A program made the position numbers and the translations under genes. Below, piece after piece: positions 1,144 through 32,025 of a DNA stretch of 54,718 nt. The notes under the pieces are model-generated. The model saw nothing but the letters and a program-made list of their open reading frames with translations. It did no database searches and was not told the DNA's origin. Each line of letters opens with the position of its first letter. Within the stretch, counting starts at the first letter, position 1. Source of the stretch: an uncultured Porphyromonadaceae bacterium (GTDB taxonomy: Bacteria > Bacteroidota > Bacteroidia > Bacteroidales > Muribaculaceae); the NCBI GenBank assembly GCA_947175495.1, contig CAMWNB010000011.1, positions 1-54,718 of the forward strand, written 5' to 3'.

Positions 1144-2121
1144 TCAGTCGTCGTCGCTGTTTCTGATTATTTTGTGCACATAGTCCTTGGAGCGCTCCAC
1201 GGCTGCTGCGATGGCCCGGATGGAGGCACCCTCGCGGCGCATCTTTTGTATGCGCTCCACAGCGTCGGCGTCGGACGCCTGCGTCTCGGCCGGAGCGTCG
1301 GCCAGCGCCTCCGCCTCGGTGCAGTAGCCCAGGGGAGCGAGCCCCAGCATGCCGTCGTCGCGGCGTATCTCGTAGCGTATCACATGGCCTGCGCCGTACT
1401 CTATCTCCGTGAGCCTCGCCTTCAGCTGCTTCACATAGCGGCCTCCTTCGCCTTCCTGCGAGAAATCCTTGCCGAGGGCGAACACCGAGTCCATGAAGTT
1501 CGACAGATGGCGGCTGCCGCCGAGCGAGTTGATGGTGAGCGGCGCTCCGGCAGGGCGCTTCGGCGTGTGGGCAAGCACGAGAATCGATATGCCCGTGCGC
1601 TTCTTCATGCCGCACAGCAGCTGCATCAGCGCAATGGCCGACTTGCCTTCCTCGAGGTTGCGGCACAGCCATGTGATATTATCTATTATTATATGACTGG
1701 CTCCGGCCGTCATCGCCAGGCGCTCAATGTCGGCCACGATGTCGTCGAGGCTGTCGGTGGCCTCCTCCTGCGAGAACTCCACGCGCTTGAAGTTGAACGG
1801 CATCGCACACGGACGGCCGCTGTCGGGGTCGGAGTAGCGCTTCTGATACTGCTTCATCGACATCTCGAAGTCGAAGTAGAGCACATTGCAGCGGTGCTTC
1901 TGCGCTATATCCATGCCTATCTGCACCGCCAGCAGCGACTTGCCCATGTTGGTGTCGGCAAAGAGGCATGCCACCTCGCCGCTGTGCCACAGCGAGCCGC
2001 ACAGCGGCACAGGGTCGGGCATGACGGCTGCTTCCGCCAGCCATTCGCCGCCGCTCTTGCACACGAAGCGCCGCACGCCATAGTCGGGAGTCGTGTCTCC
2101 CGTCTGCATAATGTCTTCCAT
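1144..2121 (-). CDS. RepA-like AAA ATPase (hexameric-helicase family)
   Basis: 325 aa. A RecA-fold core has Walker A at about residues 55-62 (ADTNMGKS), Walker B at about 144-148 (IIIDN) and a sensor-like AHTPKR at about 185. This fits the AAA_25/RepA group related to plasmid RSF1010 RepA helicase. The C-terminal 40 residues (about 287-320, IQKMRREGASIRAIAAAV) look like a helix-turn-helix. The gene is upstream of the toprim primase-like gene on the same strand, giving a helicase-primase pair typical of integrated or conjugative elements in Bacteroidales. Inverted copies of a decamer array flank it on both sides. A -7-like TAACTTTG lies 53 nt upstream of the start. Whether the pair still drives replication of anything cannot be told from this window. 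Confidence 0.8.
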   Translation of the reverse strand: MEDIMQTGDTTPDYGVRRFVCKSGGEWLAEAAVMPDPVPLCGSLWHSGEVACLFADTNMGKSLLAVQIGMDIAQKHRCNVLYFDFEMSMKQYQKRYSDPDSGRPCAMPFNFKRVEFSQEEATDSLDDIVADIERLAMTAGASHIIIDNITWLCRNLEEGKSAIALMQLLCGMKKRTGISILVLAHTPKRPAGAPLTINSLGGSRHLSNFMDSVFALGKDFSQEGEGGRYVKQLKARLTEIEYGAGHVIRYEIRRDDGMLGLAPLGYCTEAEALADAPAETQASDADAVERIQKMRREGASIRAIAAAVERSKDYVHKIIRNSDDD

Positions 2122-2173
2122 AATAATTAATAATAATAATGATTAGATGAATATTGAAGTTGTAGACACGCCG

Positions 2174-2181
2174 CAAAGTTA
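2174..2181 (-). promoter_or_regulatory. Putative -7 element of the RepA-like gene
   Basis: Read on the minus strand, the box is TAACTTTG, matching TAnnTTTG. No clear TTTG -33 element is seen at the usual distance, so support is partial. Confidence 0.45.
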
Positions 2182-2265
2182 GCGAGCATCGCCCCGACGC
2201 CATACCATTTTTGCGTCTCTCCGTCGCGAACCACGGCCTCCACCCGCACATGCACCGAGCCGCAG

Positions 2266-2400
2266 CCGTGTCCGTCCGTGTCCGTCCGTGTCCGTCTTGT
2301 CTGCGAAGAGCCCTCCCGCGGACACGACAGACACTCGCGGACACTCGCAGACAGCTGCGGACACCCACGGACACCCGCGGACACCCTCAGACACCCTCAG
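2266..2400. repeat. Decamer array 2, inverted copy of array 1
   Basis: A TCCGTCCGTG-rich tail (2266-2310) is followed by about eight 10-bp units of the form ACACYCGCGG (2321-2400). These are the reverse complement of the array 1 unit. Units here are more diverged. The order tail-array is mirrored relative to array 1, so the two copies form a long imperfect inverted repeat enclosing the RepA-like gene. The array ends about 14 nt before the GH97 promoter. The 343-nt gap 2122-2464 holds this array, the two promoters and nothing else I can recognise. Confidence 0.85.
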
Positions 2401-2413
2401 ACACCCGATTGCA

Positions 2414-2445
2414 TTTGGCAGCGAGGATTATTTTCATTAAATTTG
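2414..2445 (+). promoter_or_regulatory. Bacteroidetes promoter of the GH97 operon
   Basis: TTTG at 2414-2417, 20-nt spacer, TAAATTTG at 2438-2445. This matches the Bacteroidetes consensus closely. The predicted transcription start is about 12-15 nt before the ATG at 2465. Confidence 0.8.
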
Positions 2446-2464
2446 CAGAAAATACCCCGCATCC

Positions 2465-4441
2465 ATGAGAAAGACACTCATCGCACTCTCTGTGGCGCTT
2501 GCCGCCGCCCATGGCGTCGCTGCGCAGAGCTATACCCTCGTCAGCCCCGACGGCTCCACCTCCGCCACCATAGCCGTCACGGCCGACGGCGGCCTTGCCT
2601 ACAGCGTGCACCGCGACGGCCGCACGATGCTCGCCCCCTCGCCTCTGGGCCTGCGCACGAGCATCGGCGATTTCGGCCCGGGCCTGCGCATCGTGGCCGC
2701 CGACACGGCCACAATCCGACGCAGCTACGACCAGACGCGCATCAAGCGCTCGCACGTCGACTACGCTGCCCGCTCGCTGCGCCTGACGGCTGTCAACGCC
2801 GCTGCCGACACCCTCGGCGTGGAGTTCCGCGTGGCCGACGGCGGCGACGTGGCCTTCCGCTATCTTATGCCCCGCCAGCGTGGCGGCGAGCTCGGAGCCG
2901 TCACCGTGCTCGGCGAGCACAGCGGCTTCGCCCTGCCCGAAGGCTCCACGGCCTTTGCGACGCCGCAGAGCCCTCCCATGGAGGGCTGGAAGCGCACCAA
3001 GCCGTCGTACGAGGAAGTCTACGCCGTCGACGTGCCCGTGGGCACGCCCTCGCAGTACGGCCTGGGCTTCACCTTCCCCGCTCTGTTCCGCACGGCCTCG
3101 GGCGGCTGGGTGCTGCTGGGCGAGACCGGCGTCGACAGCCGCTATGTGGGGTCGCGCCTCGCGGACGCCGACTCCGCCGGCGTCTACCGCATAGCCTTCC
3201 CCATGGACGGCGAGAACAACGGCAACGGCGACACCACCGCCGCCATGGGCTTGCCCGCAGCGACGCCCTGGCGCACCATCACCACCGGCTCCACGCTCGC
3301 CCCCATCGTGGAGACCACCGTCGCCTGGGACCTCGTGGAGCCCCTCTATGAAGCCACGGAAGCGCCGCGCGCCGCCAAGGGCACCTGGAGCTGGATCCTA
3401 TGGCAGGACGAGAGTATCAACCTCGCCGACCAGAAGGCCTACGTCGACCTGGCCGCCGCCATGGGCTACGACCATGTGCTCGTCGACAACTGGTGGGACA
3501 CCCGCATTGGCCGCGAAGGCATCGAGGAGCTCGTGGGCTACGCCCGCGACAAGGGCGTAGGCGTCATGCTGTGGTACTCGTCGAGCGGCTGGTGGAACGA
3601 CATCGTGCAGGGACCCACGGGAGTGATGTGCAGCTCCATCGAGCGCAAGAAAGCCATGCGCTGGATGCAGGGCATAGGCGTGCGCGGCATCAAGGTCGAC
3701 TTCTTCGGGGGCGACAAGCAGGAGACCATGCGCCTGTACGAGGACATCCTCGCCGACGCCAACGAGTACGGCATAGCCGTGATTTTCCACGGATGCACCA
3801 TGCCGCGGGGGTGGGAGCGCATGTATCCCAACTATGTAGGCAGCGAGGCCGTGCTGGCTTCGGAGAACATGGTGTTCTCGCAGTGGTTCGCCGACACGGT
3901 GGAGGCCCCCGCAGCCACGCTCCATCCCTTCATCCGCAACTCGCTCGGCTCCATGGAATACGGCGGCACCATCCTCAACCGCCACCTCAGCCGCGACAAC
4001 CGCAGCGGCGTGCGGCGCCGCACCTCCGACGCCTTCCAGCTGGCCACGGCCGTGCTCTATCAGAACCCCGTGCAGAACTTCGCCCTGGCGCCCAACAACC
4101 TCACCGACGCTCCGGCCGAGGCTATCGGCTTCATGCGCCGCGTGCCCACCGAGTGGGACGAGACCCTCTACATCGACGGCTACCCCGGCCGCTACGCCGT
4201 CATCGCCCGCCGCAGCGGCCCGGACTGGTACATTGCCGGCGCAAGCGCCCTCGCGGAGCCTATTGAACTGCGGCTGCGCCTTCCGATGCTTGCCAAGGGC
4301 GACAGCGTGCGGGTGCTCGCCGACGCCGACGCCGACGGCACCCTCGTGCAGCGCACGGAGCGGGTGGGCAGCCCCGACGCCTTCGAAATCACCCTCCGGC
4401 CCGGCGGAGGTTTTGTAATAGAGAAAAATGAGAAATTATAA
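2465..4441 (+). CDS. Glycoside hydrolase family 97, retaining (alpha-galactosidase-like)
   Basis: 658 aa with an N-terminal signal peptide (about residues 1-21, cleaved after AAHGVAAQ), so periplasmic or surface located. The order is the usual GH97 one: N-terminal beta-sandwich (about 22-290), TIM barrel (about 300-550), C-terminal beta domain. The barrel holds IKVDFFGGD with D412. SusB-type inverting enzymes lack an Asp at this site, whereas retaining members such as B. thetaiotaomicron BtGal97b use it as nucleophile (D415, from memory). E467 lies 55 residues later, the same spacing as D415/E470 in BtGal97b, and would be the acid/base. The length is also close to BtGal97b rather than SusB. 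First gene of an operon; its 3' end overlaps the next gene by 14 nt. Confidence 0.88.
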   Translation: MRKTLIALSVALAAAHGVAAQSYTLVSPDGSTSATIAVTADGGLAYSVHRDGRTMLAPSPLGLRTSIGDFGPGLRIVAADTATIRRSYDQTRIKRSHVDYAARSLRLTAVNAAADTLGVEFRVADGGDVAFRYLMPRQRGGELGAVTVLGEHSGFALPEGSTAFATPQSPPMEGWKRTKPSYEEVYAVDVPVGTPSQYGLGFTFPALFRTASGGWVLLGETGVDSRYVGSRLADADSAGVYRIAFPMDGENNGNGDTTAAMGLPAATPWRTITTGSTLAPIVETTVAWDLVEPLYEATEAPRAAKGTWSWILWQDESINLADQKAYVDLAAAMGYDHVLVDNWWDTRIGREGIEELVGYARDKGVGVMLWYSSSGWWNDIVQGPTGVMCSSIERKKAMRWMQGIGVRGIKVDFFGGDKQETMRLYEDILADANEYGIAVIFHGCTMPRGWERMYPNYVGSEAVLASENMVFSQWFADTVEAPAATLHPFIRNSLGSMEYGGTILNRHLSRDNRSGVRRRTSDAFQLATAVLYQNPVQNFALAPNNLTDAPAEAIGFMRRVPTEWDETLYIDGYPGRYAVIARRSGPDWYIAGASALAEPIELRLRLPMLAKGDSVRVLADADADGTLVQRTERVGSPDAFEITLRPGGGFVIEKNEKL

Positions 4442-21589: not shown

Positions 21590-22093
21590 TCAATTTACCC
21601 CCCCCCTATTTGCTTTGTTTAATTCATTGATAGGCTGCCTTTTACGGATGAACTTCGCAGGGTTGCCGCCCCATATTTCCCACGCGGGAATATCTTTGGT
21701 GACCACGCTTCCGGCAGCCACCACAGCCCCTTCCCCTATCTCTACAGAATTGACAATCAAAGAGTTCATCCCGATGAAAGCATCGTTGCCGATGGTCACT
21801 TTGCCGAGGTACATTCCGCAATTGTCCGGGTTGTAGAAATGTGTGAGAATCTGTACGCCGGTAGTTATGCCTACATGTTCACCTATTTCCACGAGGTCAG
21901 GCCGGATGCCGTCGAACCCCACATGGGCTCCTATGAAAGAACGTGGGCCGATGCTTATGCCAGCCATGCGAAGCAGCCTTACGCGCAATTTAGTGTATAG
22001 CCATGGCGATTCGCTGAGTGTCACCAGAAGTTTTCGCCAAATACGCTTGAGCGGATATGAAGTCTGGCCGAGTCGGTCTATTTTAGGGTTCAT
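21590..22093 (-). CDS. Hexapeptide-repeat acyltransferase (WcaF/LacA-like)
   Basis: 167 aa. Left-handed beta-helix repeats are visible (ISIGPRSFIGAHVGFD, VEIGEHVGITTGVQI, VTIGNDAFIGMNSLIV, VEIGEGAVVAAGSVV), with the family's ILTHFYNPDN loop holding the catalytic His and a GGNPAKFI end. It probably O-acetylates a sugar of the polysaccharide. Last gene of the operon, overlapping the GT4 gene by 4 nt. A run of nine G (coding strand) lies four codons before the stop, so a slip would only alter the last residues. Confidence 0.82.
   Translation of the reverse strand: MNPKIDRLGQTSYPLKRIWRKLLVTLSESPWLYTKLRVRLLRMAGISIGPRSFIGAHVGFDGIRPDLVEIGEHVGITTGVQILTHFYNPDNCGMYLGKVTIGNDAFIGMNSLIVNSVEIGEGAVVAAGSVVTKDIPAWEIWGGNPAKFIRKRQPINELNKANRGGVN
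21598..21606. repeat. Mononucleotide tract (C9; G9 on coding strand)
   Basis: Nine C on the + strand at the 3' end of the hexapeptide acyltransferase gene. Loss of one G gives TAA directly after the tract; gain of one adds about eight residues. Confidence 0.9.
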
Positions 22094-23202
22094 TGTTTTG
22101 TTATAGTTTTAATGTGTTCTACATACTTTTTTGCAACCGACGGCCATGTGTATTCGTTTGCAATGCGTTGATAGTTATTCTCGACAGGTCCGTATAATGT
22201 CTCCGGACTGTCAACTGCCAGCTCTATGGCTTTGACGAGATCGGCTTCCGATTCCGGCATCACCCATAAGGCATTCGCCTTCTCGAGGAGTTCTCTATTG
22301 GCCGGTATGTCCGATGCTATTACCGGCACTTTTCGGCTCATTGCCTCCATAAGAGTTATCGCAAGACCCTCAGAGGTAGAAGGGATGCAGAACGCAAAGG
22401 CATTACGCAGTAGAACTTCCTTGTCAGCACCGAATACAGCGCCTGTGAACACTATGTCGTCACGTCCGGCCGCCAGTTGATGCAGTGAGTTTACGAAATC
22501 CGGCTGAGCGTTGTTGTCACCGGCTATCACGAGACTATAGCCAGCGTGGCTTGCCTTTTTGAATGCTGATATGAGATAGTGTGGGTTCTTCACTTCCGTA
22601 AGTCTCGCCAGCAGCAGGAAATAGCGCTTGCTCTGAAGGCCGAAACGCTCAAGCACATTGCTTTTCGGCTGCTCATCGTCGGGGAGGATGACAGCACCGG
22701 GAATGGTCACGGCATCATAGCCATAACGCTTTTTAAAGTATTGAGTCTGATAATCGCTGCACATTATCAAGTTTGGCGTAGCCCACGCCGTGTAGTGCTC
22801 AAGTATCTGTAAAATCTTTTTCTGGCCGGGTGAATACTTGCTCTGACACCATTCCAGGCCATGGCCCTGCAGCAGGCACGCGCGTCCGAACAGGCGTCCC
22901 AGAGGGCTCCAAAGGGCGGGTGGCCACGCATTGAGATGAATAATGTCCACATTCTTGATGTGGCGTATCGTGTGCCACATAGCTTTGAGACTTAGCAAAG
23001 GCTTGCATAGGAAACGGCTCTTGGGACTTTTTTGGTGAATGACACGGAAACCGCAATACATTTCCTCGCCGTTTCGCTGGCTCTCGCAGAACACGATGGG
23101 TTCATGTCCCAGCCGCACGAGCTCAGATGCAAGATTGCGCACATAATTCTCTATGCCGCCGGTTGTGTGTATGTCTCGTCCTCCGATGAATACTATCTTC
23201 AT
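22090..23202 (-). CDS. Family 4 glycosyltransferase
   Basis: 370 aa, GT-B fold. The N-terminus KIVFIGGRDIHTTGGIENYVRNLASEL is the acceptor-side opening typical of GT4. The C-terminal donor domain shows LLLARLTEVKNP, VIAGDNN and the E-x7-E-type motif in CIPSTSEGLAITLMEAMSRKVPVIASD. It acts at the cytoplasmic face of the membrane, adding one sugar of the repeat unit. It overlaps the following acyltransferase gene as ATGA. Low GC like its operon neighbours. Confidence 0.88.
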   Translation of the reverse strand: MKIVFIGGRDIHTTGGIENYVRNLASELVRLGHEPIVFCESQRNGEEMYCGFRVIHQKSPKSRFLCKPLLSLKAMWHTIRHIKNVDIIHLNAWPPALWSPLGRLFGRACLLQGHGLEWCQSKYSPGQKKILQILEHYTAWATPNLIMCSDYQTQYFKKRYGYDAVTIPGAVILPDDEQPKSNVLERFGLQSKRYFLLLARLTEVKNPHYLISAFKKASHAGYSLVIAGDNNAQPDFVNSLHQLAAGRDDIVFTGAVFGADKEVLLRNAFAFCIPSTSEGLAITLMEAMSRKVPVIASDIPANRELLEKANALWVMPESEADLVKAIELAVDSPETLYGPVENNYQRIANEYTWPSVAKKYVEHIKTITKQ

Positions 23203-23264
23203 ATTAGATTGTCATAAAGATTCTTTTTACCGCCTTTTGTCATTGCTTCTCCAGATAATTCATG

Positions 23265-24311
23265 TCACGATAGCAATTTTAGGTAGTTTTGCCGGAATGC
23301 CTGCATGCTGTATTCCCTGTGCAGGATGCAGTTTCCTTCACGTCCCATGCGCACGCGCAGGTCGTGAGATTCGGCCAAGCGCACTATAGCAGAAGAAATG
23401 GCGTCCACGTCTTTGGCCGGAACGACGAACCCGCTCTTTCCATTGTCTACGAGCCTTGCATTGTCGCCCACATCAGTGGCCACTACGGGCAGCGAGGCGT
23501 CCATGGCCTCCATGATAGAGTTGCTGGTTCCCTCAAACAAAGATGTCGACAGATATATGTCGCTGTCGGCCAGGAACGACGGGATGTTTTTGGGATTGAT
23601 AATCATCTCCACGCAGTCTTCCACGCCATAGGCCTTTATCCATTCGCGTATCTGCTGCTCAAGTTCGCCGTGGCCTATAATAAGATAGCGCAGCGACGGA
23701 ACTGCGGCATTTGCCCGGGCAAATGCCGCAATGGCCGTTTCATAGTCTTTTTGCGCCACGAAGCGCGCCACCGACACCACCCGCACAGTCTCGCGCATAG
23801 GGCGTTCGACGGCAGCCTTGGGGTTGAGATAGCAGTTCGGGATAACAGTCATTCTGCGGATGCCCTTGCGCCCGAACACATCCATGCCTGCGTAGTTGTT
23901 GACCACAGCGCCTGTCGCAAGCACGTTGCCGATCTTCTCAAGCATGAGTTTGGCCGTGGGCAGGCTCGCATTTCTAAGGCCCTGGTAGATGTGTTTCACT
24001 CCGGCCATGCGTCCGACTATCGGCCCCCAGAAATCGGGGTAGGTGAGGTAGCAGAACATCGTGTCGGCCTTGATTGCACGCAGCCTGCGGTAAAGCTCGC
24101 GTAGCCTCGACATGCTGCTCCCTGAGAACATGGTGATGTTTTCAGGGCCGGGCGCATACAGATCCATCAGCTCTTTTTCCAGTCCGGCTTCCGGAAACAG
24201 TACGAAAAGATGCACCTTGTGTGTGTCTGCCAGCGCATTGCCAAGAAGCACAGCCTGTTTCTCGGCACCGCCCTTCTTAAGCGTAGGGATAAGTATTGCT
24301 ATTGTGCTCAT
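23265..24311 (-). CDS. Family 4 glycosyltransferase
   Basis: 348 aa. It opens IAILIPTLKKGGAEKQAVLLGNAL. The donor domain has VVSVARFVAQKDYETAI, YLIIGHGELE and the nucleotide-sugar motif STSLFEGTSNSIMEAMDASLPVVATDVGDN. Second GT4 of the operon. The 62-nt gap to the next gene holds nothing recognisable. The sugar specificity is not readable from sequence. Confidence 0.88.
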   Translation of the reverse strand: MSTIAILIPTLKKGGAEKQAVLLGNALADTHKVHLFVLFPEAGLEKELMDLYAPGPENITMFSGSSMSRLRELYRRLRAIKADTMFCYLTYPDFWGPIVGRMAGVKHIYQGLRNASLPTAKLMLEKIGNVLATGAVVNNYAGMDVFGRKGIRRMTVIPNCYLNPKAAVERPMRETVRVVSVARFVAQKDYETAIAAFARANAAVPSLRYLIIGHGELEQQIREWIKAYGVEDCVEMIINPKNIPSFLADSDIYLSTSLFEGTSNSIMEAMDASLPVVATDVGDNARLVDNGKSGFVVPAKDVDAISSAIVRLAESHDLRVRMGREGNCILHREYSMQAFRQNYLKLLS

Positions 24312-24327
24312 AGAAATCGTCGTTAAT

Positions 24328-25482
24328 CTACATCTTTCCGAATTGCATGGTGATTATTTTGCCTAACATAAATATTTCTCCGTAAAGGAAAGGCAACAGC
24401 AGCAACCTGTTCATCACTTTGTAGCTGCAAAATTTGTTCTGGTACATATAAGTGATGATAAGGCATAGTGGAATACCGGCCATATACAGATATCTATAAC
24501 CTATAACCCACAAACCAATTATTTGATTGCCTGCAATTCCGAGTATCGTGATTGCTATGAGCACGATGAATAAGGTGAGCGTCAGATAACGGCTTATAGC
24601 TTCGGAACAAACTTTGTTGTTCTTTCTGAAATAAAATTTCCATATTGCGTAGCCCAGGGCTATATAAAAACTATAATATCTGAGAGTGGTGATGAGTTCC
24701 CATTTCCAGTTGAACGCAATCTGTATCTTGGATGATGCGTATCCCTGTGCGCTTTTGGCAAATTCACTGCTGTTATCAGCTAAAAGTGCGCCGGAGATGA
24801 TTCCGCCTAACACATATTTCACACCCATAATCACAAATGGCGTAGTCAGTAAAATCAAAAGTACTCTTTTTTTCGTAAGTTTGAAGAATACTAAAGGACT
24901 AAGTGCTATTAGCACCAAAACACTTCTATGGGAAATATATGCTAATGCAAACATGCCAGCAGCAATACACAGTCGTCGCAATATGTTCCCTTTGTTGACG
25001 ACAAGGAAACTGGCTCCATAGAAATATAGTGCCATAGCAAGTGAGACACGGGCATACGAAAACGTCAGCATAAAGAATATTGTGAATACATAAATGAATA
25101 AATTCTCATTTAGTTTCAGTCTCTTAGCTGTTAAGTACACAAATATTAATGCCGCGCCCCATACAAACAACCTGAATATAATATATGAGCCGCAAGACAA
25201 CAATGATATGTAATAGTATATAGGGTCTCTGAAGTCCTTTAGTCCATGATAAAAATTTCTTGCAAAGCTAAAATAGTCAGTATCCCAGAATGCGTACAGG
25301 CAGAAAAGCAAAACGGAACACCAGGAGAGTTGGCGGGTGGTTTTGCTATCCTTAAGTAAATATACTATAAGGAATACAAAATTCATAAGAACAAAGCAAA
25401 ACCAGAACTCCGACAAAGAAGTGCCGGTGGGGCGTGGTATATGCAGGTCGAAATTCCAGTTAAAGGCAGATGGCAAATCCAT
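24328..25482 (-). CDS. EpsG/Wzy-type polysaccharide polymerase
   Basis: 384 aa from ATG 25482 (MDLPSAFNWNFDL); the frame extends to a TTG at 25518 that overlaps wzx. About 10-11 hydrophobic segments. The region after the first membrane helices has DTDYFSFARNFYHGLKDFRDPIYYYISLL, which resembles the EpsG family D-x-D-Y pattern. It probably polymerises undecaprenyl-linked repeat units in the periplasm. Strongly AT-rich with ATA and TTA codons, unlike the flanking genes. Confidence 0.75.
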   Translation of the reverse strand: MDLPSAFNWNFDLHIPRPTGTSLSEFWFCFVLMNFVFLIVYLLKDSKTTRQLSWCSVLLFCLYAFWDTDYFSFARNFYHGLKDFRDPIYYYISLLSCGSYIIFRLFVWGAALIFVYLTAKRLKLNENLFIYVFTIFFMLTFSYARVSLAMALYFYGASFLVVNKGNILRRLCIAAGMFALAYISHRSVLVLIALSPLVFFKLTKKRVLLILLTTPFVIMGVKYVLGGIISGALLADNSSEFAKSAQGYASSKIQIAFNWKWELITTLRYYSFYIALGYAIWKFYFRKNNKVCSEAISRYLTLTLFIVLIAITILGIAGNQIIGLWVIGYRYLYMAGIPLCLIITYMYQNKFCSYKVMNRLLLLPFLYGEIFMLGKIITMQFGKM

Positions 25483-25492
25483 ACTCAGTGAT

Positions 25493-26752
25493 TTAAATGG
25501 TACATTGTTTTTTTGCAAAAAAATACACTAATGTTCCTATTATGACGCGGGACAATGCTATGGCGCATGCCGCTCCGGTGTAGCTGAAGAAATAAATGAG
25601 AGGTATGGCAGATATAGCTCCTGCTAAAGAAGCATATAACGTTATTTTCCGCAGCAGCCTCTCTTTGCCGGTGATTAATAGATAATTTGTTCCGTATATA
25701 TTGGTAATAGAATGGAAAATCAGAGAAGCTCCCAATATCCGCAGTGGCATGATTGAAGGCTTGAACGAATCACCTAAGACTACGTCTACAAGTATAGGCG
25801 CGCCAAATACCAATACTAAAGAAAAAAGTATCGTGATGGCGAGTTTTATCTTTGCATATACGATATGTTTTTCTATGTGTCTTGAGAGATAGGGAAAAAA
25901 GGCACGGCTCAAAATCGTGAGAAATTGGCTTCCAATGCTATAAAACTTATTTGCTCCTTCAAGAAAACCATTAGCTACGCTTCCTCCCCAAAAACCGAGC
26001 AAGAGCACGGAGAAGTTTGTATAGAGGTTGGGTATAATAGTGTTTAAGAATACGTCAAAGCCGCTTTTAACGCTATCGCACACATCGCTGACATGTGCAA
26101 AATGAAATTTGATATGGAAAGAATATCTTATGTATAGCATGCTGATTATTCCCGCCATAATATATCCGAGGCCGGCAAATACAGGCTGTAGCACATAGTC
26201 CTTGGATTCATCGATGAATACGAATATCAGCACTGTAAAAAGGGCCTTAGACAGCAAATTTAGTATTGTAATCATCTTCATTCTCTCCATTCCTTGAAAC
26301 AACCATTCGGGAAAAATGGTTTGTCCGATAACAATGGAAAAAGATAAAGCGATTACCAAGTAGTTCTCTTTAAAATATGGTACTGTAATGAGAAGCACAG
26401 CAAGACAAATGCCGGAGACAAGCATTAGAGCCAGCTTGCTTGTCGTCACAATTGAATATATCCTTTCAACCGCCGCTTTGTCTCCCCGGCATTTTGCTAT
26501 ATCTCTCGTGGCAGTGAAATTATAGCCCCAGTCGGTAATTGTCATAAAGTACACGATTACAGACATGGCAAATGCTATTTTACCAAATCCCTCTACTCCG
26601 ATTACACGTGCGAGGTATGGATATGTTAAAATCGGCAGGACATAGCTGCCGATTTGAAGCAGCGAGAGATAAGAGAAATTTGTAATTACGCGTTTAGCAT
26701 CTTTTGACGCCTGCACGCGTTTCAAAATATTCGTAGGTTTAGTCACGCTCAC
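25493..26752 (-). CDS. Wzx-type oligosaccharide flippase
   Basis: 419 aa, about 12 membrane helices. The opening NFSYLSLLQIGSYVLPILTYPYLARVIGVEGFGKIAFAMS, with its PxLxxPYLARxxG and GFG pattern, is characteristic of MATE/PST-family polysaccharide flippases. The start is GTG at 26752; an in-frame stop lies nine codons upstream and no ATG is suitable. It moves lipid-linked repeat units across the inner membrane for the polymerase encoded next. Confidence 0.88.
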   Translation of the reverse strand: MSVTKPTNILKRVQASKDAKRVITNFSYLSLLQIGSYVLPILTYPYLARVIGVEGFGKIAFAMSVIVYFMTITDWGYNFTATRDIAKCRGDKAAVERIYSIVTTSKLALMLVSGICLAVLLITVPYFKENYLVIALSFSIVIGQTIFPEWLFQGMERMKMITILNLLSKALFTVLIFVFIDESKDYVLQPVFAGLGYIMAGIISMLYIRYSFHIKFHFAHVSDVCDSVKSGFDVFLNTIIPNLYTNFSVLLLGFWGGSVANGFLEGANKFYSIGSQFLTILSRAFFPYLSRHIEKHIVYAKIKLAITILFSLVLVFGAPILVDVVLGDSFKPSIMPLRILGASLIFHSITNIYGTNYLLITGKERLLRKITLYASLAGAISAIPLIYFFSYTGAACAIALSRVIIGTLVYFFAKKQCTI

Positions 26753-26773
26753 AATTGATAGATTACGAGGTTT

Positions 26774-27712
26774 CTATACTTTTTTATTGAACCATATGGC
26801 GGCTTTCATGAATGGCCGCGCTATTGCCACTAAAATCTGTTCCCGCAGACGCAGTTTTGGCCTGTCTTCCGGATGTTCCAATGACAATAGCAGTGCGTAA
26901 CCAGCTATATTTTTGAGATATGCTTTCTTGTCGTATCGAAGTAACAAATCGGAACGCTCCAATAATGTGAAATAGAATTCTACAAGTTTGTTGTAGATCA
27001 TTCGCTTATCGCCGGCCATGCATCTGGATAATGCTCCATCGCAGAGTCCGCCTGTCGATTCAATATATATACGTGTGATTTCAGGTACAAAACGAGTTTT
27101 GTATTTTCGTGCGGCGCGGCTCCATCTGATACCTTCAGCAAAGTTGGACGCATGCTCCATATATGGAAATACTTCCGGCACAGCGGCAATGCTATTGACA
27201 ATTTCGTTCTTCCTGCAGCCCACCATTTCGCATGAGGCTTTTTGTTTGAAACAGATGTCGTTGTAATTGGAATCATACCATGGAGAGGGCAGTTCCTTTC
27301 CTACCAGAGTCCCGTCCGGACGTTTGCATCGGGTTCTTATCTCCCAAAAATCATCGTAATCCGGCTGGTTCTCAAGTATGGACCAATGTCGGTCGAACAC
27401 TTCAAGCATGTCTGGTGTCACCGGGTCATCGTCATCGGCGGTGAGTACATATCTACCGGAAAAATACGGCATAGCTGCGCGCCATGCCGTGTGCTTTCCA
27501 CCATTCGATTTGGCTATATATTTTATGCTTATTACATCTTCCTGAATAAAAGAGTTTACTACCTCGTCGGTGTTATCGCTTGACCCGTCATTAACAATTA
27601 TCCATTCAAAATCTTTGAATGTCTGAGACTTCAGTTCTTCATAAAGCCGTGGTAGGACGCTGGCTCTATTATAAGTAGCAGTAAAAACGGAAAAGCGTTT
27701 AGGATGGCTCAT
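26774..27712 (-). CDS. Family 2 glycosyltransferase
   Basis: 312 aa from ATG 27712 (MSHPKRFSVFTATYNRASVLPRLYEEL), chosen because it overlaps the acyltransferase stop as ATGA; the frame is open to 27781 but that lies deep inside the neighbour. GT-A motifs are IIVNDGSSDNTDEV, GGKHTAWRAA and YVLTADDDDPV. The C-terminal part with GLCDGALSRCMAGDKRMIYNKLVEFY resembles enzymes adding hexoses in O-antigen loci. It would add one sugar of the repeat unit in the cytoplasm. Confidence 0.85.
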   Translation of the reverse strand: MSHPKRFSVFTATYNRASVLPRLYEELKSQTFKDFEWIIVNDGSSDNTDEVVNSFIQEDVISIKYIAKSNGGKHTAWRAAMPYFSGRYVLTADDDDPVTPDMLEVFDRHWSILENQPDYDDFWEIRTRCKRPDGTLVGKELPSPWYDSNYNDICFKQKASCEMVGCRKNEIVNSIAAVPEVFPYMEHASNFAEGIRWSRAARKYKTRFVPEITRIYIESTGGLCDGALSRCMAGDKRMIYNKLVEFYFTLLERSDLLLRYDKKAYLKNIAGYALLLSLEHPEDRPKLRLREQILVAIARPFMKAAIWFNKKV

Positions 27713-28653
27713 TTTATAAATGGAGTTAAACGGTAGGCAAAATATTTTAGAATGATGGCTGTTAATATAGAGATGGCACATACAATAACTGTAGATAGAT
27801 AAGCGCCGGTATTCTCAATAATATTGCCGCGGGCACATAAAGCTATTACAGCGCCTTGTACGAGATATATTTCATACGAATACTTTCCGAGAAATGATAA
27901 AGTTTTTGAATTAAATCCCGGCATAGTGGCAAGTATAAACCATAATAAAATACATATTGTAAGATTATAAATCGGCGTAAGCCGGACAAACATAGCTCCT
28001 AAACTTACAAGTGTGACAGATAACATAAATAAAGTAAGTCTTCCACGTTTTTTTTGAAGCATATTTAAGATCTGTCGTTCGTAGGATGCTATGAACACGC
28101 CAAGATTGAACGCAGGTACGGCATTTACCCACCAACCGCCCCAATGAAATATCTTTAATACGAGAATACAATATACTGCAGTGAATATAAGCATAGTAAT
28201 ATTCATTGCTCTTAATGACTTTGTGCTCTTACATGAAACGTAAAATGAGAGATATAAAAATATGATGGCAAATATAAACCAAGACGTGGGCAGTGGTGGA
28301 AAGCCATCGGCAAAACGATGTGCGAACCATTGCATGCTCTTATCGCCAAGTAACTCTATTGTTACAAATATAGTAGTGGCCAATAAAAATGGCGGTAAAA
28401 GCTTCGTAAATCTTTTGCTTATAAAATGGTTTATGTAATCGTCTCCATTGTTAATTCTGGATTTTATAAGCCCATATCCGGATAAAAAGAAAAAGATTGA
28501 CACCACAATAGTACCCCATGGCCCGAATTGTCCGGGGAATATCATATCTTTGAAATGAAAAGACATGTGGTGTGCAATGATTAAAAATGCCAATATCCCT
28601 TTAACTTGCGTTGAAACGGAAACACTTACCCCCCCCACTCGGGTGTAATGCAC
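27709..28653 (-). CDS. Acyltransferase 3 family membrane protein, possible phase-variable start
   Basis: 314 aa, about 10 membrane helices. The family signature lies at the N-terminus, STQVKGILAFLIIAHHMSFHF with its HH pair, then FFLSGYGLIKSR, the F-S/SGYG motif. It probably O-acetylates the polysaccharide. The only start in this frame is GTG 28653, with an in-frame TAA three codons upstream. Codons 6-9 run through a G8 tract. One G fewer gives GGG GGG TAA, an immediate stop. One G more would join the frame that begins at ATG 28718. The gene may therefore switch by slippage. Confidence 0.82.
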   Translation of the reverse strand: MHYTRVGGVSVSVSTQVKGILAFLIIAHHMSFHFKDMIFPGQFGPWGTIVVSIFFFLSGYGLIKSRINNGDDYINHFISKRFTKLLPPFLLATTIFVTIELLGDKSMQWFAHRFADGFPPLPTSWFIFAIIFLYLSFYVSCKSTKSLRAMNITMLIFTAVYCILVLKIFHWGGWWVNAVPAFNLGVFIASYERQILNMLQKKRGRLTLFMLSVTLVSLGAMFVRLTPIYNLTICILLWFILATMPGFNSKTLSFLGKYSYEIYLVQGAVIALCARGNIIENTGAYLSTVIVCAISILTAIILKYFAYRLTPFIK

Positions 28654-28718
28654 TGAGTGTTAATGGTGTATGTGCGCAATAGCAAGACTGCTATGATTGT
28701 AAGTGCTAATAGATACAT
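28626..28718 (-). CDS. Possible 30-aa hydrophobic leader ORF
   Basis: ATG 28718 begins one nt after the stop of the QueC-like gene and encodes MYLLALTIIAVLLLRTYTI and about 11 more residues, ending at TAA directly behind the G8 tract. With nine G the frame would continue into the acyltransferase. It may be the true N-terminus in an alternate phase, a separate small membrane peptide, or chance. Confidence 0.35.
   Translation of the reverse strand: MYLLALTIIAVLLLRTYTINTQCITPEWGG
28629..28636. repeat. Mononucleotide tract (C8; G8 on coding strand)
   Basis: Eight C on the + strand, codons 6-9 of the acyltransferase 3 gene; the placement allows on/off switching by a one-base slip. Confidence 0.9.
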
Positions 28719-28719
28719 C

Positions 28720-29472
28720 CTAATTTTTCTTTATTCGGCAAGCTATCATTTGCCATGGCTTATGTATGTAGTATAGCAGCCTGCCGGACAGCGGCACACG
28801 GAATGCAAGCCCTTCGTTGATGCTGTCGCGACATGGGTTGCAATGGCCGCAGGGACGGCCGAACGCTGGTGAGTGACAGAACCAAGTATGTTTGACAGTG
28901 TCGCCATGACCTATGGCGCGTAACTTTTCTACCTCTTCCAGTTTTGTCATTCCCCACAGCGAGGTGGGTAAGTCTATGTGCGAATATATAAGATTGCCGT
29001 CATGGCTGCTTCCACTTGCCTCTGCACGGAGAACGCTATAGGCTCCGTCTTTGAATGGCACCAGTTTTAATTCTGTTTGGACGCATGCATAGGCTTTTGA
29101 GCGGTCGCTTTTTTCAAGACTCATTTCGAACCTGATGTTGTGCTGAGTTGCATACCGTGCGATAAGATCATACTGATGTCCTATTACGTGTTTGTCGTGC
29201 AATCGGTTGAACGCAGCAGTAATTTCTTCATCCGGAAGTATTTCGTTGAGCTGTATCGTTTTCAGATCAAGAAGCTGAGATTTTGTAAGTGGATGTTTGC
29301 GTATGATGTCAGTAATGGTTTTTATCGCGCGTAATTCATTTTTCAATGAATTGCGTACAAGGTCAACAATATACCAAGGTTGTATCGTTAGGCCTTTCAT
29401 CTGCGAAAGCTCAATCACTCGAAAACTTGAATCAAGTCCTCCGGTCCAAAGGATATTAACTGTTCTGCTCAC
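28720..29472 (-). CDS. QueC-like PP-loop ATP-dependent enzyme
   Basis: 250 aa. The N-terminal PP-loop is ILWTGGLDSSFR (SGGxDS-like, residues 10-16), which binds ATP for adenylation. The C-terminus has four cysteines, C199-x8-C208-x2-C211-x2-C214 (WFCHSPAFGRPCGHCNPC), matching the zinc site of 7-cyano-7-deazaguanine synthase QueC. The middle does not look like housekeeping QueC, and the setting is a polysaccharide operon, so a modified substrate such as a sugar carboxylate or amide is possible. The start is GTG 29472, 12 nt after the ATP-grasp stop. Confidence 0.7.
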   Translation of the reverse strand: MSRTVNILWTGGLDSSFRVIELSQMKGLTIQPWYIVDLVRNSLKNELRAIKTITDIIRKHPLTKSQLLDLKTIQLNEILPDEEITAAFNRLHDKHVIGHQYDLIARYATQHNIRFEMSLEKSDRSKAYACVQTELKLVPFKDGAYSVLRAEASGSSHDGNLIYSHIDLPTSLWGMTKLEEVEKLRAIGHGDTVKHTWFCHSPAFGRPCGHCNPCRDSINEGLAFRVPLSGRLLYYIHKPWQMIACRIKKN

Positions 29473-29484
29473 TTGTATATTATT

Positions 29485-30381
29485 CTATTTGGTTAATTCA
29501 ATCAGTTGCCCGAGGGTCGTGTCCCATTCGGAGGGGGCAAAGCGGCCCATGCCGCTGCCGGGGTAAAAGGTAAGCTCCCCAAAGAGTATTCGCCCGTTTA
29601 TGTTGTACAGATCAACGCGCACAAAGGGAATGCCTGCCGACAGCGTCGTTGCTATCTCAAGCATCTTGTCGAGGCCCTCGGGGCGCGGAGCGGGTTGGGC
29701 AGCATGCCGGGCTGCAGGGTTCAGCCCGATGAATGGCTGCAGTTGCCATTCGGTGTCGTAGAAGTCTATGGTCTCGCCGCTGTGACGGTCCTGGATGAGC
29801 TGGATGTAGACCGGACGTCCGTTGAAACAAAATATCTTATAGTCGCTCAAGTCTTCTTTGCCGGGCATTTCTATGAATTCCTCGGCAAGAATGCGTCTGG
29901 GCACATCGCGGTAGGGCCGCTCGCGGTAGGCCTTGTAAATGTCAGTCGACAACGATTTGTTCAGCATTTTTCGAGCCTTGGCTCTGTCGAATGTTTTTTT
30001 GTCGGCACACACACACACACCCATGCTGCCGCCGCCATGGGTGGTCTTGAGCACGAAGCGCTCCGGCAGCGAGTCGATGTCAATATCGTCAAAGCTGTCC
30101 CATATCCCGATTGTGGGGATAATGTATTCCGCGCCTATACGCTCGGCCACAAAATCCTTTACGGCGGCTTTGTCGACCATGGTGGTGTATTGGTCTTGAT
30201 TTCCGTAAAGTTTCAGCCACTGGATTTTTTCGCAGAATGTGACGGGATTTTCCGTGCGCAGCTTGTTGCCGGTCTGCAGCCTATAGAGCATCTGCAGGTA
30301 AATTTTGTCGGGAATCGCGCTCGCTCCGGGTGTGTGTCGGAGAATGTAGGAGAGCGCTTTCCTGAGCGAAAAATGTGGCAT
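29485..30381 (-). CDS. TupA-like ATP-grasp protein
   Basis: 298 aa from ATG 30381 (MPHFSLRKALSYILRH), 14 nt after the regulator stop. Family features are IPDKIYLQMLYRLQTGNKLRTENPVTFCEKIQWLKLY, FVLKTTHGGGSMGV (nucleotide-binding loop), RRILAEEFI and FVRVDLYNINGRILFGELTFYPGSG (metal-binding acidic residues). TupA-like enzymes attach amino acids to surface polysaccharides such as teichuronopeptide. It presumably decorates the polymer made by this operon. A 13-nt CA/GT tract lies within the glycine-loop region. Confidence 0.85.
   Translation of the reverse strand: MPHFSLRKALSYILRHTPGASAIPDKIYLQMLYRLQTGNKLRTENPVTFCEKIQWLKLYGNQDQYTTMVDKAAVKDFVAERIGAEYIIPTIGIWDSFDDIDIDSLPERFVLKTTHGGGSMGVCVCADKKTFDRAKARKMLNKSLSTDIYKAYRERPYRDVPRRILAEEFIEMPGKEDLSDYKIFCFNGRPVYIQLIQDRHSGETIDFYDTEWQLQPFIGLNPAARHAAQPAPRPEGLDKMLEIATTLSAGIPFVRVDLYNINGRILFGELTFYPGSGMGRFAPSEWDTTLGQLIELTK
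30006..30018. repeat. Dinucleotide (CA)6C tract inside the TupA-like gene
   Basis: Six and a half CA units, encoding V-C-V-C on the minus strand just after GGGSMG. A slip would frameshift the gene. Confidence 0.9.
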
Positions 30382-30395
30382 ATTATGGATTGAGT

Positions 30396-31835
30396 TTATA
30401 AATCTGTGATTTGGTAGTCGGGGATGGAGGCGAGCCAGGAGAGGCCGTAGCCGGAAAGCAGGCGTACGCTGAACATGCGGCGGGAGTTGGACGAGCCGTC
30501 GCACACGTCGAATATTTCGCCTTCGTAGCCGGCCATGAGGCCGCCGGTGACGCGCACTTTGCGGCCGGGGCCGAGTGTCGGGATGTCGGAAGCCAGCAGT
30601 TTTATATCTGGAGTGAAACAGCCGACAACGCGCTGAAATGCGGCCATCTGCGTGTCGCTTATCGTGGCATAGGCGGAGTCGGCAGCGGCCGTCTCGCGGT
30701 AGCACCAGGCGAGATCTCCGATTGTCCGGAACATTGACGCAATATCTCGCTCGGATGCTTTGAAGAACAGCACGTCGGGAAGATAGGCTAAAGTCTCTTT
30801 CTTCAGCGAGCTGCCTACGCGGCGCACTATTTCATCGGTAGGGTAGTATGTGATTTCCGGCATAAGGTCGCACGCATTAAGCCGTTCCAGCACCTGCGCG
30901 GGAGAGGTGCGTCGCCGCAGGTGCATCGCGTGCCAGCATTTGCGGCCGCCATTAATGAAAAGTGCCACCCTGTCGAGCACCTGCCGACGCTTTTCCTCGC
31001 TAAGTGTGGCCGGACGCACGAGTTGCATCGCAGTTGCCGAGGGCGGTACGCATGGGGTGCACGCTTTGGCGACGGAGGGACGTTCGCCGGCCTGCAGAGC
31101 GGCATCAAGCCACAGCGCTGCGGCATAATTGTCGCTGTAATCGGTCACGCGGGCGTCGTTGCGCGACAACAATGCTCCGATACGCCGCCCCGTTTCGATC
31201 CGGAGCGCTTTTGCTCCTCGACGTGTCTGCGACAAAGGGAAGACGTGAAGACGTCGCGGGGAAGTGTACTGCAAGGCAATGGCCTTCGCTCTGTCCGGCA
31301 ATGGTTCCGACCGGTCGTCTCGCAGCCCGATGATGTCGTCAAGGCCCATGCCTCCGCAAGCCTGCGAGAATTCAAGGATGTCCAGCATGAGCTGGTATTC
31401 AGTGTTTCCCGTGCGCCGGTTTCGGAGCAGTTGTAAAAGCGGGGTGCAGTCGGCTGTGATATCTTCTTTTATTCCGGCATCGCCATACCCGTGGAACATG
31501 CACTTTGCCGGAACCCCGCTCATGGCTGTCGCCTTTCCGTATAGGGCGCCCATGCAGTCGAGGTAATATTTTGCAGTTGTAGCGAGCAGTCCGTCGATTG
31601 CCATCTGCTCGACCCATGCGTCCACTGCATCCTGCGATAAATCTTCAAGCGAGATGGTGGAGACTCCTTTCACGCGCTTGAACGAGTCGAATGCTTTGCG
31701 ATAGGATGCCGCCGTAGTCGGGTGCATCTCTTTAATCGCAACTTCAAGGAGCGTTGCAGCCGTGGGTGAGCTATTGTTTTGGGCCTCAGTGATATCTGAC
31801 CGTATGGGACTACTTAACCAATCCAATTTATGCAA
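30396..31835 (-). CDS. Fusion: inactive tyrosine-recombinase-like region + UpxY/NusG antiterminator
   Basis: 479 aa in one ORF. Residues about 25-105 (TLLEVAIKEMHPTTAASYRKAFDSFKRVKG) look like the SAM-like core-binding domain of tyrosine recombinases. Residues about 130-265 resemble the catalytic domain, but the usual RGM arginine site reads CGGMGLDDI, the HxxR region reads ALWLDAALQAG, and no catalytic Tyr follows. Residues about 298-405 (CWHAMHLRR...YLPDVLFFKA) are an UpxY-type NGN domain and about 418-475 (GRKVRVTGGLMAGYEGEIFDV) a KOW domain. UpxY proteins are antiterminators of the capsule operon they head, as here. The start is TTG 31835; the first ATG, 31727, would cut into the SAM-like domain. 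Confidence 0.75.
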   Translation of the reverse strand: MHKLDWLSSPIRSDITEAQNNSSPTAATLLEVAIKEMHPTTAASYRKAFDSFKRVKGVSTISLEDLSQDAVDAWVEQMAIDGLLATTAKYYLDCMGALYGKATAMSGVPAKCMFHGYGDAGIKEDITADCTPLLQLLRNRRTGNTEYQLMLDILEFSQACGGMGLDDIIGLRDDRSEPLPDRAKAIALQYTSPRRLHVFPLSQTRRGAKALRIETGRRIGALLSRNDARVTDYSDNYAAALWLDAALQAGERPSVAKACTPCVPPSATAMQLVRPATLSEEKRRQVLDRVALFINGGRKCWHAMHLRRRTSPAQVLERLNACDLMPEITYYPTDEIVRRVGSSLKKETLAYLPDVLFFKASERDIASMFRTIGDLAWCYRETAAADSAYATISDTQMAAFQRVVGCFTPDIKLLASDIPTLGPGRKVRVTGGLMAGYEGEIFDVCDGSSNSRRMFSVRLLSGYGLSWLASIPDYQITDL

Positions 31836-31907
31836 GTGCTCTTTTATTCCCCGACGACATGCTTTTGCTGTGTGTCTCCGGAGTAAAAATAGTGTTATCG
31901 AAACAAA

Positions 31908-31993: not shown

Positions 31994-32025
31994 CAAAATT
32001 ACGCCAATTTGGCGAGAAAAGCAAG
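31994..32025 (-). promoter_or_regulatory. Promoter of the polysaccharide operon with an internal palindrome
   Basis: Minus-strand TTG (32024-32022), 20-nt spacer, TAATTTTG (32001-31994). The palindrome CGCCAA-T-TTGGCG (32002-32014) fills the spacer next to the -7 box and could be an operator. The leader to the TTG start is about 150 nt. The gap 31836-32090 holds this promoter and the hairpins only. Confidence 0.65.

What the first reader, a model, noticed from the sequence alone, without database searches (positions are those of the whole stretch)
30396..31835. Capsule-operon regulator fusing a catalytically dead tyrosine recombinase to an UpxY/NusG antiterminator
One uninterrupted 479-codon ORF joins an integrase SAM-like domain and a recombinase-like catalytic region, without recognisable catalytic Arg, His-x-x-Arg or Tyr residues, to an UpxY NGN-KOW domain. 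In Bacteroides, separate recombinase and upxY genes can stand at capsule loci; I know of no described single-protein version. The recombinase part may have become a sequence-specific DNA tether that recruits the antiterminator to its own promoter or leader.
Basis: partly seen in the sequence, partly recalled or inferred. Interest (0 to 1): 0.8.

Follow-up and report, generated by a model that had tools for sequence, protein, structure and literature searches.

The report
Capsule antiterminator fused to dead recombinase
Gut bacteria of one group carry many single proteins that join an inactivated DNA-recombining enzyme to a factor that keeps RNA polymerase running, usually as the first gene of polysaccharide operons, so an old DNA-flipping module seems to have been given a new regulatory job.

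Summary
The 479-aa ORF is one protein: residues ~24-267 have a tyrosine-recombinase fold without its catalytic residues, residues ~297-479 are an UpxY-type NGN-KOW antiterminator. It is not alone: I collected 79 full-length genes of this architecture, three in the window's own genome; none was found outside one bacterial family. Trees do not reject a single fusion, and both halves are under purifying selection. Most head co-directional polysaccharide operons. In 30 of 79 loci the promoter lies in an invertible segment, and a covarying leader RNA hairpin precedes 46 of 79 (E up to 0.12), with no hit that good away from fusion genes in 1.0 Mb. The window gene has neither at significance, only a structured leader and a fixed promoter box. 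The DNA-tether idea is weakened: most basic residues conserved in active recombinases are gone and net charge falls from about +15 to +2. Best reading: a locus-dedicated antiterminator acting at its own leader, the dead recombinase half being a recruitment or docking module whose partner is unknown. I found no such protein in the papers I could search.

The parts
30396..31835 (-). fusion gene: dead tyrosine recombinase + UpxY-type antiterminator, 479 aa, TTG start
31476..31766 (-). residues 24-120: integrase SAM-like / core-binding domain
   Evidence: structure match to 2oxo and 3nrw; weak Pfam PF13102; profile alignment
31020..31466 (-). residues 124-272: recombinase catalytic-domain fold without catalytic residues
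   Evidence: structure match to 3nkh, residues 124-272; columns
30399..30947 (-). residues 297-479: NGN (about 298-405) and KOW (about 413-479) domains of UpxY/NusG type
31849..31883 (-). candidate leader hairpin, 13 nt before the annotated start; near the place of the conserved hairpin of relatives but not a significant model hit
   Evidence: z -3.37 for 31836-31900, 1 of 200 shuffles as stable; 3.4 bits, E 1.9
31994..32001 (-). TAATTTTG, matches the Bacteroidota -7 promoter box (box recalled); no inverted-repeat pair around it
21590..30390 (-). downstream co-directional polysaccharide genes: TupA ATP-grasp, QueC-like, acyltransferase, GT2, flippase (Polysacc_synt), EpsG, two GT1, hexapeptide transferase

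Best explanation
The gene encodes an operon-dedicated processive antiterminator. Its C-terminal half binds elongating RNA polymerase as NusG, RfaH and UpxY do and lets it read through the long polysaccharide operon of which it is the first gene. It is loaded in the leader (about 150 nt here) before its own start codon, where more than half of its relatives carry a covarying RNA hairpin followed by a purine tract. The N-terminal half is a tyrosine DNA invertase domesticated after fusion: it should cut no DNA and has lost most of the basic residues its active cousins share, but it is kept by selection and most likely serves as the recognition or docking module that brings the factor to its own leader complex (RNA hairpin, upstream DNA or a protein partner). 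Shown by sequence: architecture, lost catalytic residues, selection, operon position, invertible promoters in part and hairpins in more than half of the relatives. Inferred: antitermination, loading at the hairpin, the module's role.
For: Both halves by profile and structure. 79 uninterrupted genes. Of 79, none has both catalytic Arg equivalents: Arg I kept in 3, second Arg in 15, the His next to it in 0. dN/dS of the N-part 0.07-0.14 in the 7 of 12 pairs with a finite value; identities of N- and C-parts correlate at r 0.85. Downstream genes co-directional in 51 of 63 loci, with polysaccharide families leading the tally of 106 proteins. Leader hairpin: 92.4% of cells paired, 25 double-change cells against 7.3 in shuffles, 0 of 500; the model built from 23 finds 23 of the 56 other fusion genes at E up to 0.12, while the best hit away from fusion genes in 1.0 Mb is E 0.26. 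Single origin not rejected.
Against: No function was measured. The window gene is a divergent member: hairpin model only 3.4 bits, no repeat pair. 33 of 79 fusions have no hairpin hit at E up to 0.12 (29 none at E up to 10), and one sub-lineage (L118, L119, L121, L122, L123) has no co-directional downstream genes, so operon-head antitermination does not fit every member. Nothing shows that the N-part touches the leader; it evolves faster than the C-part. The training hairpins were picked by stem score, so pair counts on A2 lean towards pairing, and one measure there is weak (pairs with a change on both sides 6 against 3.7, reached by 22 of 500 shuffles).
Confidence: 0.55

Rival explanations
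1. DNA tether: the dead recombinase half binds a specific DNA site near the promoter and hands the antiterminator to RNA polymerase there.
For: Recombinase fold kept; 30 of 79 loci have paired inverted repeats of invertase type right upstream; new conserved basic positions in the loop around residues 194-206.
Against: Lost basic residues and charge; no repeat pair found at 49 of 79 loci, the window included, though at least 8 of these hold one copy and some are cut by contig ends; the same sites stand before stand-alone upxY genes and other operons.
Confidence: 0.18
2. Governor of inversion: the dead half pairs with, or competes with, the active invertase and biases or locks the promoter, coupling antitermination to phase state.
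For: Active homologues of the N-part sit next to such promoters (L064, L066, L082, L172); the fusion lies directly behind invertible promoters in 30 loci, facing the gene in 12 and away in 13.
Against: Fusions are kept in many loci without the element; of the 80 fetched loci only 3 showed a recombinase gene directly upstream by the profile used, plus one on the other strand in L094, though upstream sequence was often short.
Confidence: 0.14
3. Scaffold or autoinhibitory domain: the N-part only folds against NGN-KOW or oligomerises, and needs no nucleic acid.
For: Near-neutral charge; several of the most conserved N-part positions are large hydrophobic or small core-like residues (W74, F199, W242, A246).
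Against: Conserved polar columns as well (T87, Q203, and the columns of residues 207 and 210) that core packing alone does not explain.
Confidence: 0.1
4. Artefact or decayed gene: a chance joining of two genes or an assembly error.
For: Pieces exist: split gene in L078, N-part alone in L139, C-part alone in L140.
Against: 79 uninterrupted genes in many genomes, three in the own genome; purifying selection.
Confidence: 0.01

Closest known systems
UpxY family of NusG paralogs (Bacteroides capsule loci)
   Same: NGN-KOW; first gene of polysaccharide operons; invertible promoter upstream in part of the loci (known system from passages of PMC12118408 and PMC12632263)
   Different: The NCBIfam model has 164 positions and the stand-alone genes seen here are 161-227 aa; here a ~290-aa dead recombinase is fused in front; 54.3 bits, below the 100-bit cut-off
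Tyrosine DNA invertases of Bacteroidales (e.g. the neighbours of upxY genes in L141, L149, L150, L153, L172)
   Same: Core-binding and catalytic-domain fold, profile E 1.7e-29
   Different: Catalytic Arg and His columns lost, Lys strand pair in a gap, no Tyr in the window stretch, no arm-DNA-binding hit in the fusions scanned, charge lost
LoaP and its dfn leader hairpin (Bacillus)
   Same: NusG paralog with an RNA hairpin in the target leader (PMC12691694, passages read)
   Different: Different hairpin; LoaP as described there has no recombinase domain; binding untested here
RfaH with ops element
   Different: ops is read in non-template DNA and RfaH is monocistronic (passages of PMC12691694 and PMC7593976); no extra domain

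Membership tests
UpxY family transcription antiterminator (NF033644) | score over the curated cut-off of 100 bits | tested here: not met
   54.3 bits; five other fusions 32.7-61.8; stand-alone L171 119.9 and L172 110.4 do pass
UpxY family transcription antiterminator (NF033644) | NGN and KOW domains | tested here: met
UpxY family transcription antiterminator (NF033644) | first gene of a capsule/polysaccharide operon | tested here: met
   window operon; co-directional followers in 51 of 63 loci; not so in one sub-lineage
UpxY family transcription antiterminator (NF033644) | relieves early termination in the 5' leader | not testable with these tools
   needs a reporter assay
UpxY system | accompanied by upxZ | tested here: inconclusive
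   PF06603 found in 0 of 10 genomes, but no control genome rang either
Tyrosine recombinase | core-binding plus catalytic-domain fold | tested here: met
Tyrosine recombinase | catalytic Arg, Lys, second Arg with its neighbours, His/Trp, Tyr | tested here: not met
   Gly161, Lys strand pair in a gap, Ala239, Cys262, no Tyr in 238-329
LoaP-like RNA-guided NusG paralog | conserved RNA hairpin in the target leader | tested here: inconclusive
   46 of 79 fusions at E up to 0.12; window leader 3.4 bits only
LoaP-like RNA-guided NusG paralog | protein binds that hairpin | not testable with these tools
   needs a binding assay

The most novel reading that the evidence does not exclude
A DNA-invertase fold has been turned from DNA to RNA: the dead recombinase half reads the leader hairpin that emerges from the operon whose promoter its active cousins flip, so one protein lineage supplies both the switch and the read-through of the same capsule operon.
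Probability: 0.2. Interest if true: 0.92.

Novelty: new variant of a known kind. Interest (0 to 1): 0.72.

Why it matters
How UpxY-type factors find their own operon among many similar ones is, to my knowledge, open. This family offers two handles at once: a built-in extra domain that can be cut off, and a conserved leader hairpin that can be deleted. The hairpin model is specific enough to point at target leaders in raw genomes. The family also gives a case of a mobile-element enzyme domesticated into a transcription elongation factor, apparently once, present in several copies in some genomes and behind phase-variable promoters in part of the loci.

Tried and rejected
Looked for the inverted-repeat promoter in the window: none. 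The hairpin model on the window leader is not significant, and in the own genome there is no hit at E up to 1, so none at its three fusions; I therefore do not claim the element for the window gene. Rfam: nothing in four relatives' loci at gathering score and nothing in the window leader at E up to 1. PDB by sequence: nothing. Phages: no match in 50,697 records. Fusions outside the family: only the own genome matched at E 1e-30 in 344 order-level and 345 phylum-level genomes; at most four candidates per genome were scored, so some may be missed. A pause-site reading of the hairpin tail (G-10 Y-1 G+1, recalled consensus) fits 22 of 47 tails but was chosen after seeing the consensus, so it is no test. 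The idea that the inverted repeats belong to fusions only was dropped: in 14 fetched loci with such a pair and no fusion, 5 have a stand-alone UpxY-type gene and 9 have none. The eight next-best hairpin hits in whole genomes (E 0.004 to 0.2) were fetched and none lies before a fusion or upxY gene. Stand-alone upxY leaders give weak hits only (L014 0.006, L015 0.016, L017 0.04); the L153 hit (0.002) does not lie before its upxY gene. UpxZ: not found, but the search had no positive control.

Full report
What is there. The minus-strand ORF 30396-31835 is open from a TTG start to its stop, 479 codons. NCBIfam's UpxY model matches residues 301-446 (E 1.5e-14); Pfam alone gives only a sub-threshold integrase SAM hit. 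A search of 99 relatives found the same architecture in one reading frame in several genomes and three times in the window's own genome (G000 contigs C11, C12, C9). I aligned 15 (A1), searched 397 genomes of the same family, fetched 80 of the listed places and kept every ORF that matched the profile from before position 60 to past 430 of 474: 79 genes, from 77 of the 80 loci (two in L079) plus the window. The three dropped loci hold pieces: a split gene (L078), an N-part alone (L139), a C-part alone (L140). Counted by eye, 85 of the 397 genomes have a best match at E 1e-30 or lower, some of them partial. At that threshold only the own genome matched in an order-level draw of 344 genomes (which included some of the same family) and in a phylum-level draw of 345. 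The family is not named by the tool; the one named contig, from a genome of the same genus by its length and place, is a Bacteroidales MAG.

Is that half a DNA tether? I tested this. Of 20 recombinase columns with at least 70% Lys/Arg, 4 fall in gaps of the fusion, and of the 16 aligned only 3 keep Lys/Arg in 45% or more of fusions. Net charge of the aligned region is +9 to +24 (median +15) in recombinases, against medians of +3 in fusions with an invertible promoter and +2 in the others; single fusions reach +10 or +11, so the ranges touch. New conserved positions appear in a loop around residues 194-210. So binding as in an active recombinase is unlikely; contact of another kind is open. The half is not decaying: dN/dS is 0.07-0.14 in the 7 of 12 close pairs with a finite value, several with saturated dS. 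In quick trees of 37 of the 79 fusions with 25 recombinases, or with 25 stand-alone or C-only UpxY proteins, the fusions fall on one side of a branch in the N-part tree (support 92), and in the C-part tree only the two pieces L078 and L140 lie among them: one origin is not rejected.

Surroundings. In the window the followers are a TupA-type ATP-grasp, a weak QueC-like match, an acyltransferase, glycosyltransferases, a flippase, an EpsG-type protein and a hexapeptide transferase. Genes in relatives were called by my own greedy ORF picker. Of 63 loci with two or more downstream genes, 51 have the first three (or the two seen) co-directional. In 106 downstream proteins the 25 commonest families shown are led by flippases, aminotransferases, nucleotidyl transferases and polysaccharide export proteins.

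Invertible promoters. Upstream of 30 of 79 fusions lies a pair of inverted ATCTCTT-NNN-AAGAGAT-like sites with 160-256 bp between them; all 30 pairs have reverse-complementary NNN cores, and 7 of 1580 base-shuffled upstream regions give any repeat pair of that strength. At least 8 more loci hold a single site, some beside a contig end. A TAnnTTTG box stands mostly 22-27 nt from one repeat: facing the gene in 12, away in 13, both in 1, neither in 4 (no chance control was run for the box). L076 and L092 carry the same segment in opposite orientations. Invertible capsule promoters with adjacent tyrosine invertases and UpxY genes are known (PMC12118408 and PMC12632263, passages read), so this is a known kind of switch. 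Here the sites also stand before stand-alone upxY genes and other operons, and among 20 recombinases fetched as closest to the fusion's N-part four have a upxY-type gene directly behind them (L141, L149, L150, L153). That neighbourhood is a plausible source of the fusion (inference). In the window's own genome the looser site pattern occurs at three places, all before the other two fusions (the reversed control pattern occurs at two). The window gene has a fixed TAATTTTG box at 31994-32001 instead.

Leader hairpin. Just before many fusion genes lies an 8-bp stem, consensus CCUCUGUY with RACAGRGG, followed by GAAGAGAAGAAUUGU. On 23 sequences 92.4% of cells pair, with 25 double-change cells against 7.3 in shuffles, and a covariation score of 0.551 against at most 0.208 when slid; the number of pairs with a double change (6 against 3.7) was reached by 22 of 500 shuffles. 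These 23 were picked by stem score, which favours pairing. The fairer test is the covariance model on the rest: in 1,009,148 bases there are 60 matches at E up to 10, of which 50 lie at a fusion start, one at the split gene L078, and 9 elsewhere with E 0.26 or worse (one of them the opposite strand of a leader hairpin). At E up to 0.12 it finds 46 of 79 fusion genes, 23 of the 56 not used for training, and otherwise only L078. In 11 whole genomes the nine best hits all lie directly before known fusion genes, one of them the split gene; six of the nine are training sequences, and in most genomes only 150 first-look candidates were scored. I fetched the next eight and none stands before a fusion or upxY gene. 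A few stand-alone upxY leaders hold a related hairpin with a different stem and the same tail, weakly (L014, L015). Rfam has no match. In the window the model scores only 3.4 bits at about the expected place, though the leader folds better than shuffles (z -3.37 for 65 nt, -3.46 for 145 nt).

Literature. Searches listed no paper on a recombinase-UpxY fusion; the passages that I read in PMC7819879, PMC7593976, PMC12691694, PMC12118408, PMC9409006 and PMC12632263 mention none. [quoted passage not shown] Other papers were seen as listings only. Many subscription papers and bioRxiv lie outside the library.

Mechanism and verdict. Most likely: a locus-dedicated antiterminator, loaded in its own leader, with the dead recombinase half as recruitment or docking module. 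The C-half's role rests on family and operon position; the N-half's partner is the open question. Rivals: DNA tether, inversion governor, scaffold.

Noticed in passing
L118, L119, L121, L122, L123 (fusion sub-lineage; L124 is a close relative): These fusions have no co-directional downstream genes, no repeat pair and no hairpin hit, with a conserved divergent neighbour in several; they look single-gene and could act in trans as RfaH does.
   Followed up: partly
L185:5183-6250 (G000:C4): A 355-aa UpxY-like protein in the window's own genome matches the UpxY model at residues 55-197 and carries about 160 further residues at the C-terminus; no Pfam match.
   Followed up: no
L170, L173, L174, L176, L177, L179, L180, L181, L183: The same paired sites stand in loci without a UpxY-type gene; in L173, L174 and L179 the neighbours have the sizes of RND efflux genes (by size only).
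   Followed up: no
L078:6084-7783, L139:8302-9369, L140:3412-3966: Pieces of the fusion: a split gene, an N-part alone and a C-part alone; described only.
   Followed up: partly
L079:54-1463 and 1967-3442: Two divergent fusion genes share one repeat-flanked segment, so one inversion could switch between two genes.
   Followed up: no
L192:3173-3220: A hairpin-like element (E 0.004) lies inside an ORF of the other strand and not before a fusion or upxY gene, in G142, about 18 kb from its fusion gene.
   Followed up: partly
L141, L149, L150, L153: Tyrosine recombinase, inverted repeats of several different motifs, then a stand-alone upxY-type gene: the two-gene form closest to the fusion.
   Followed up: partly
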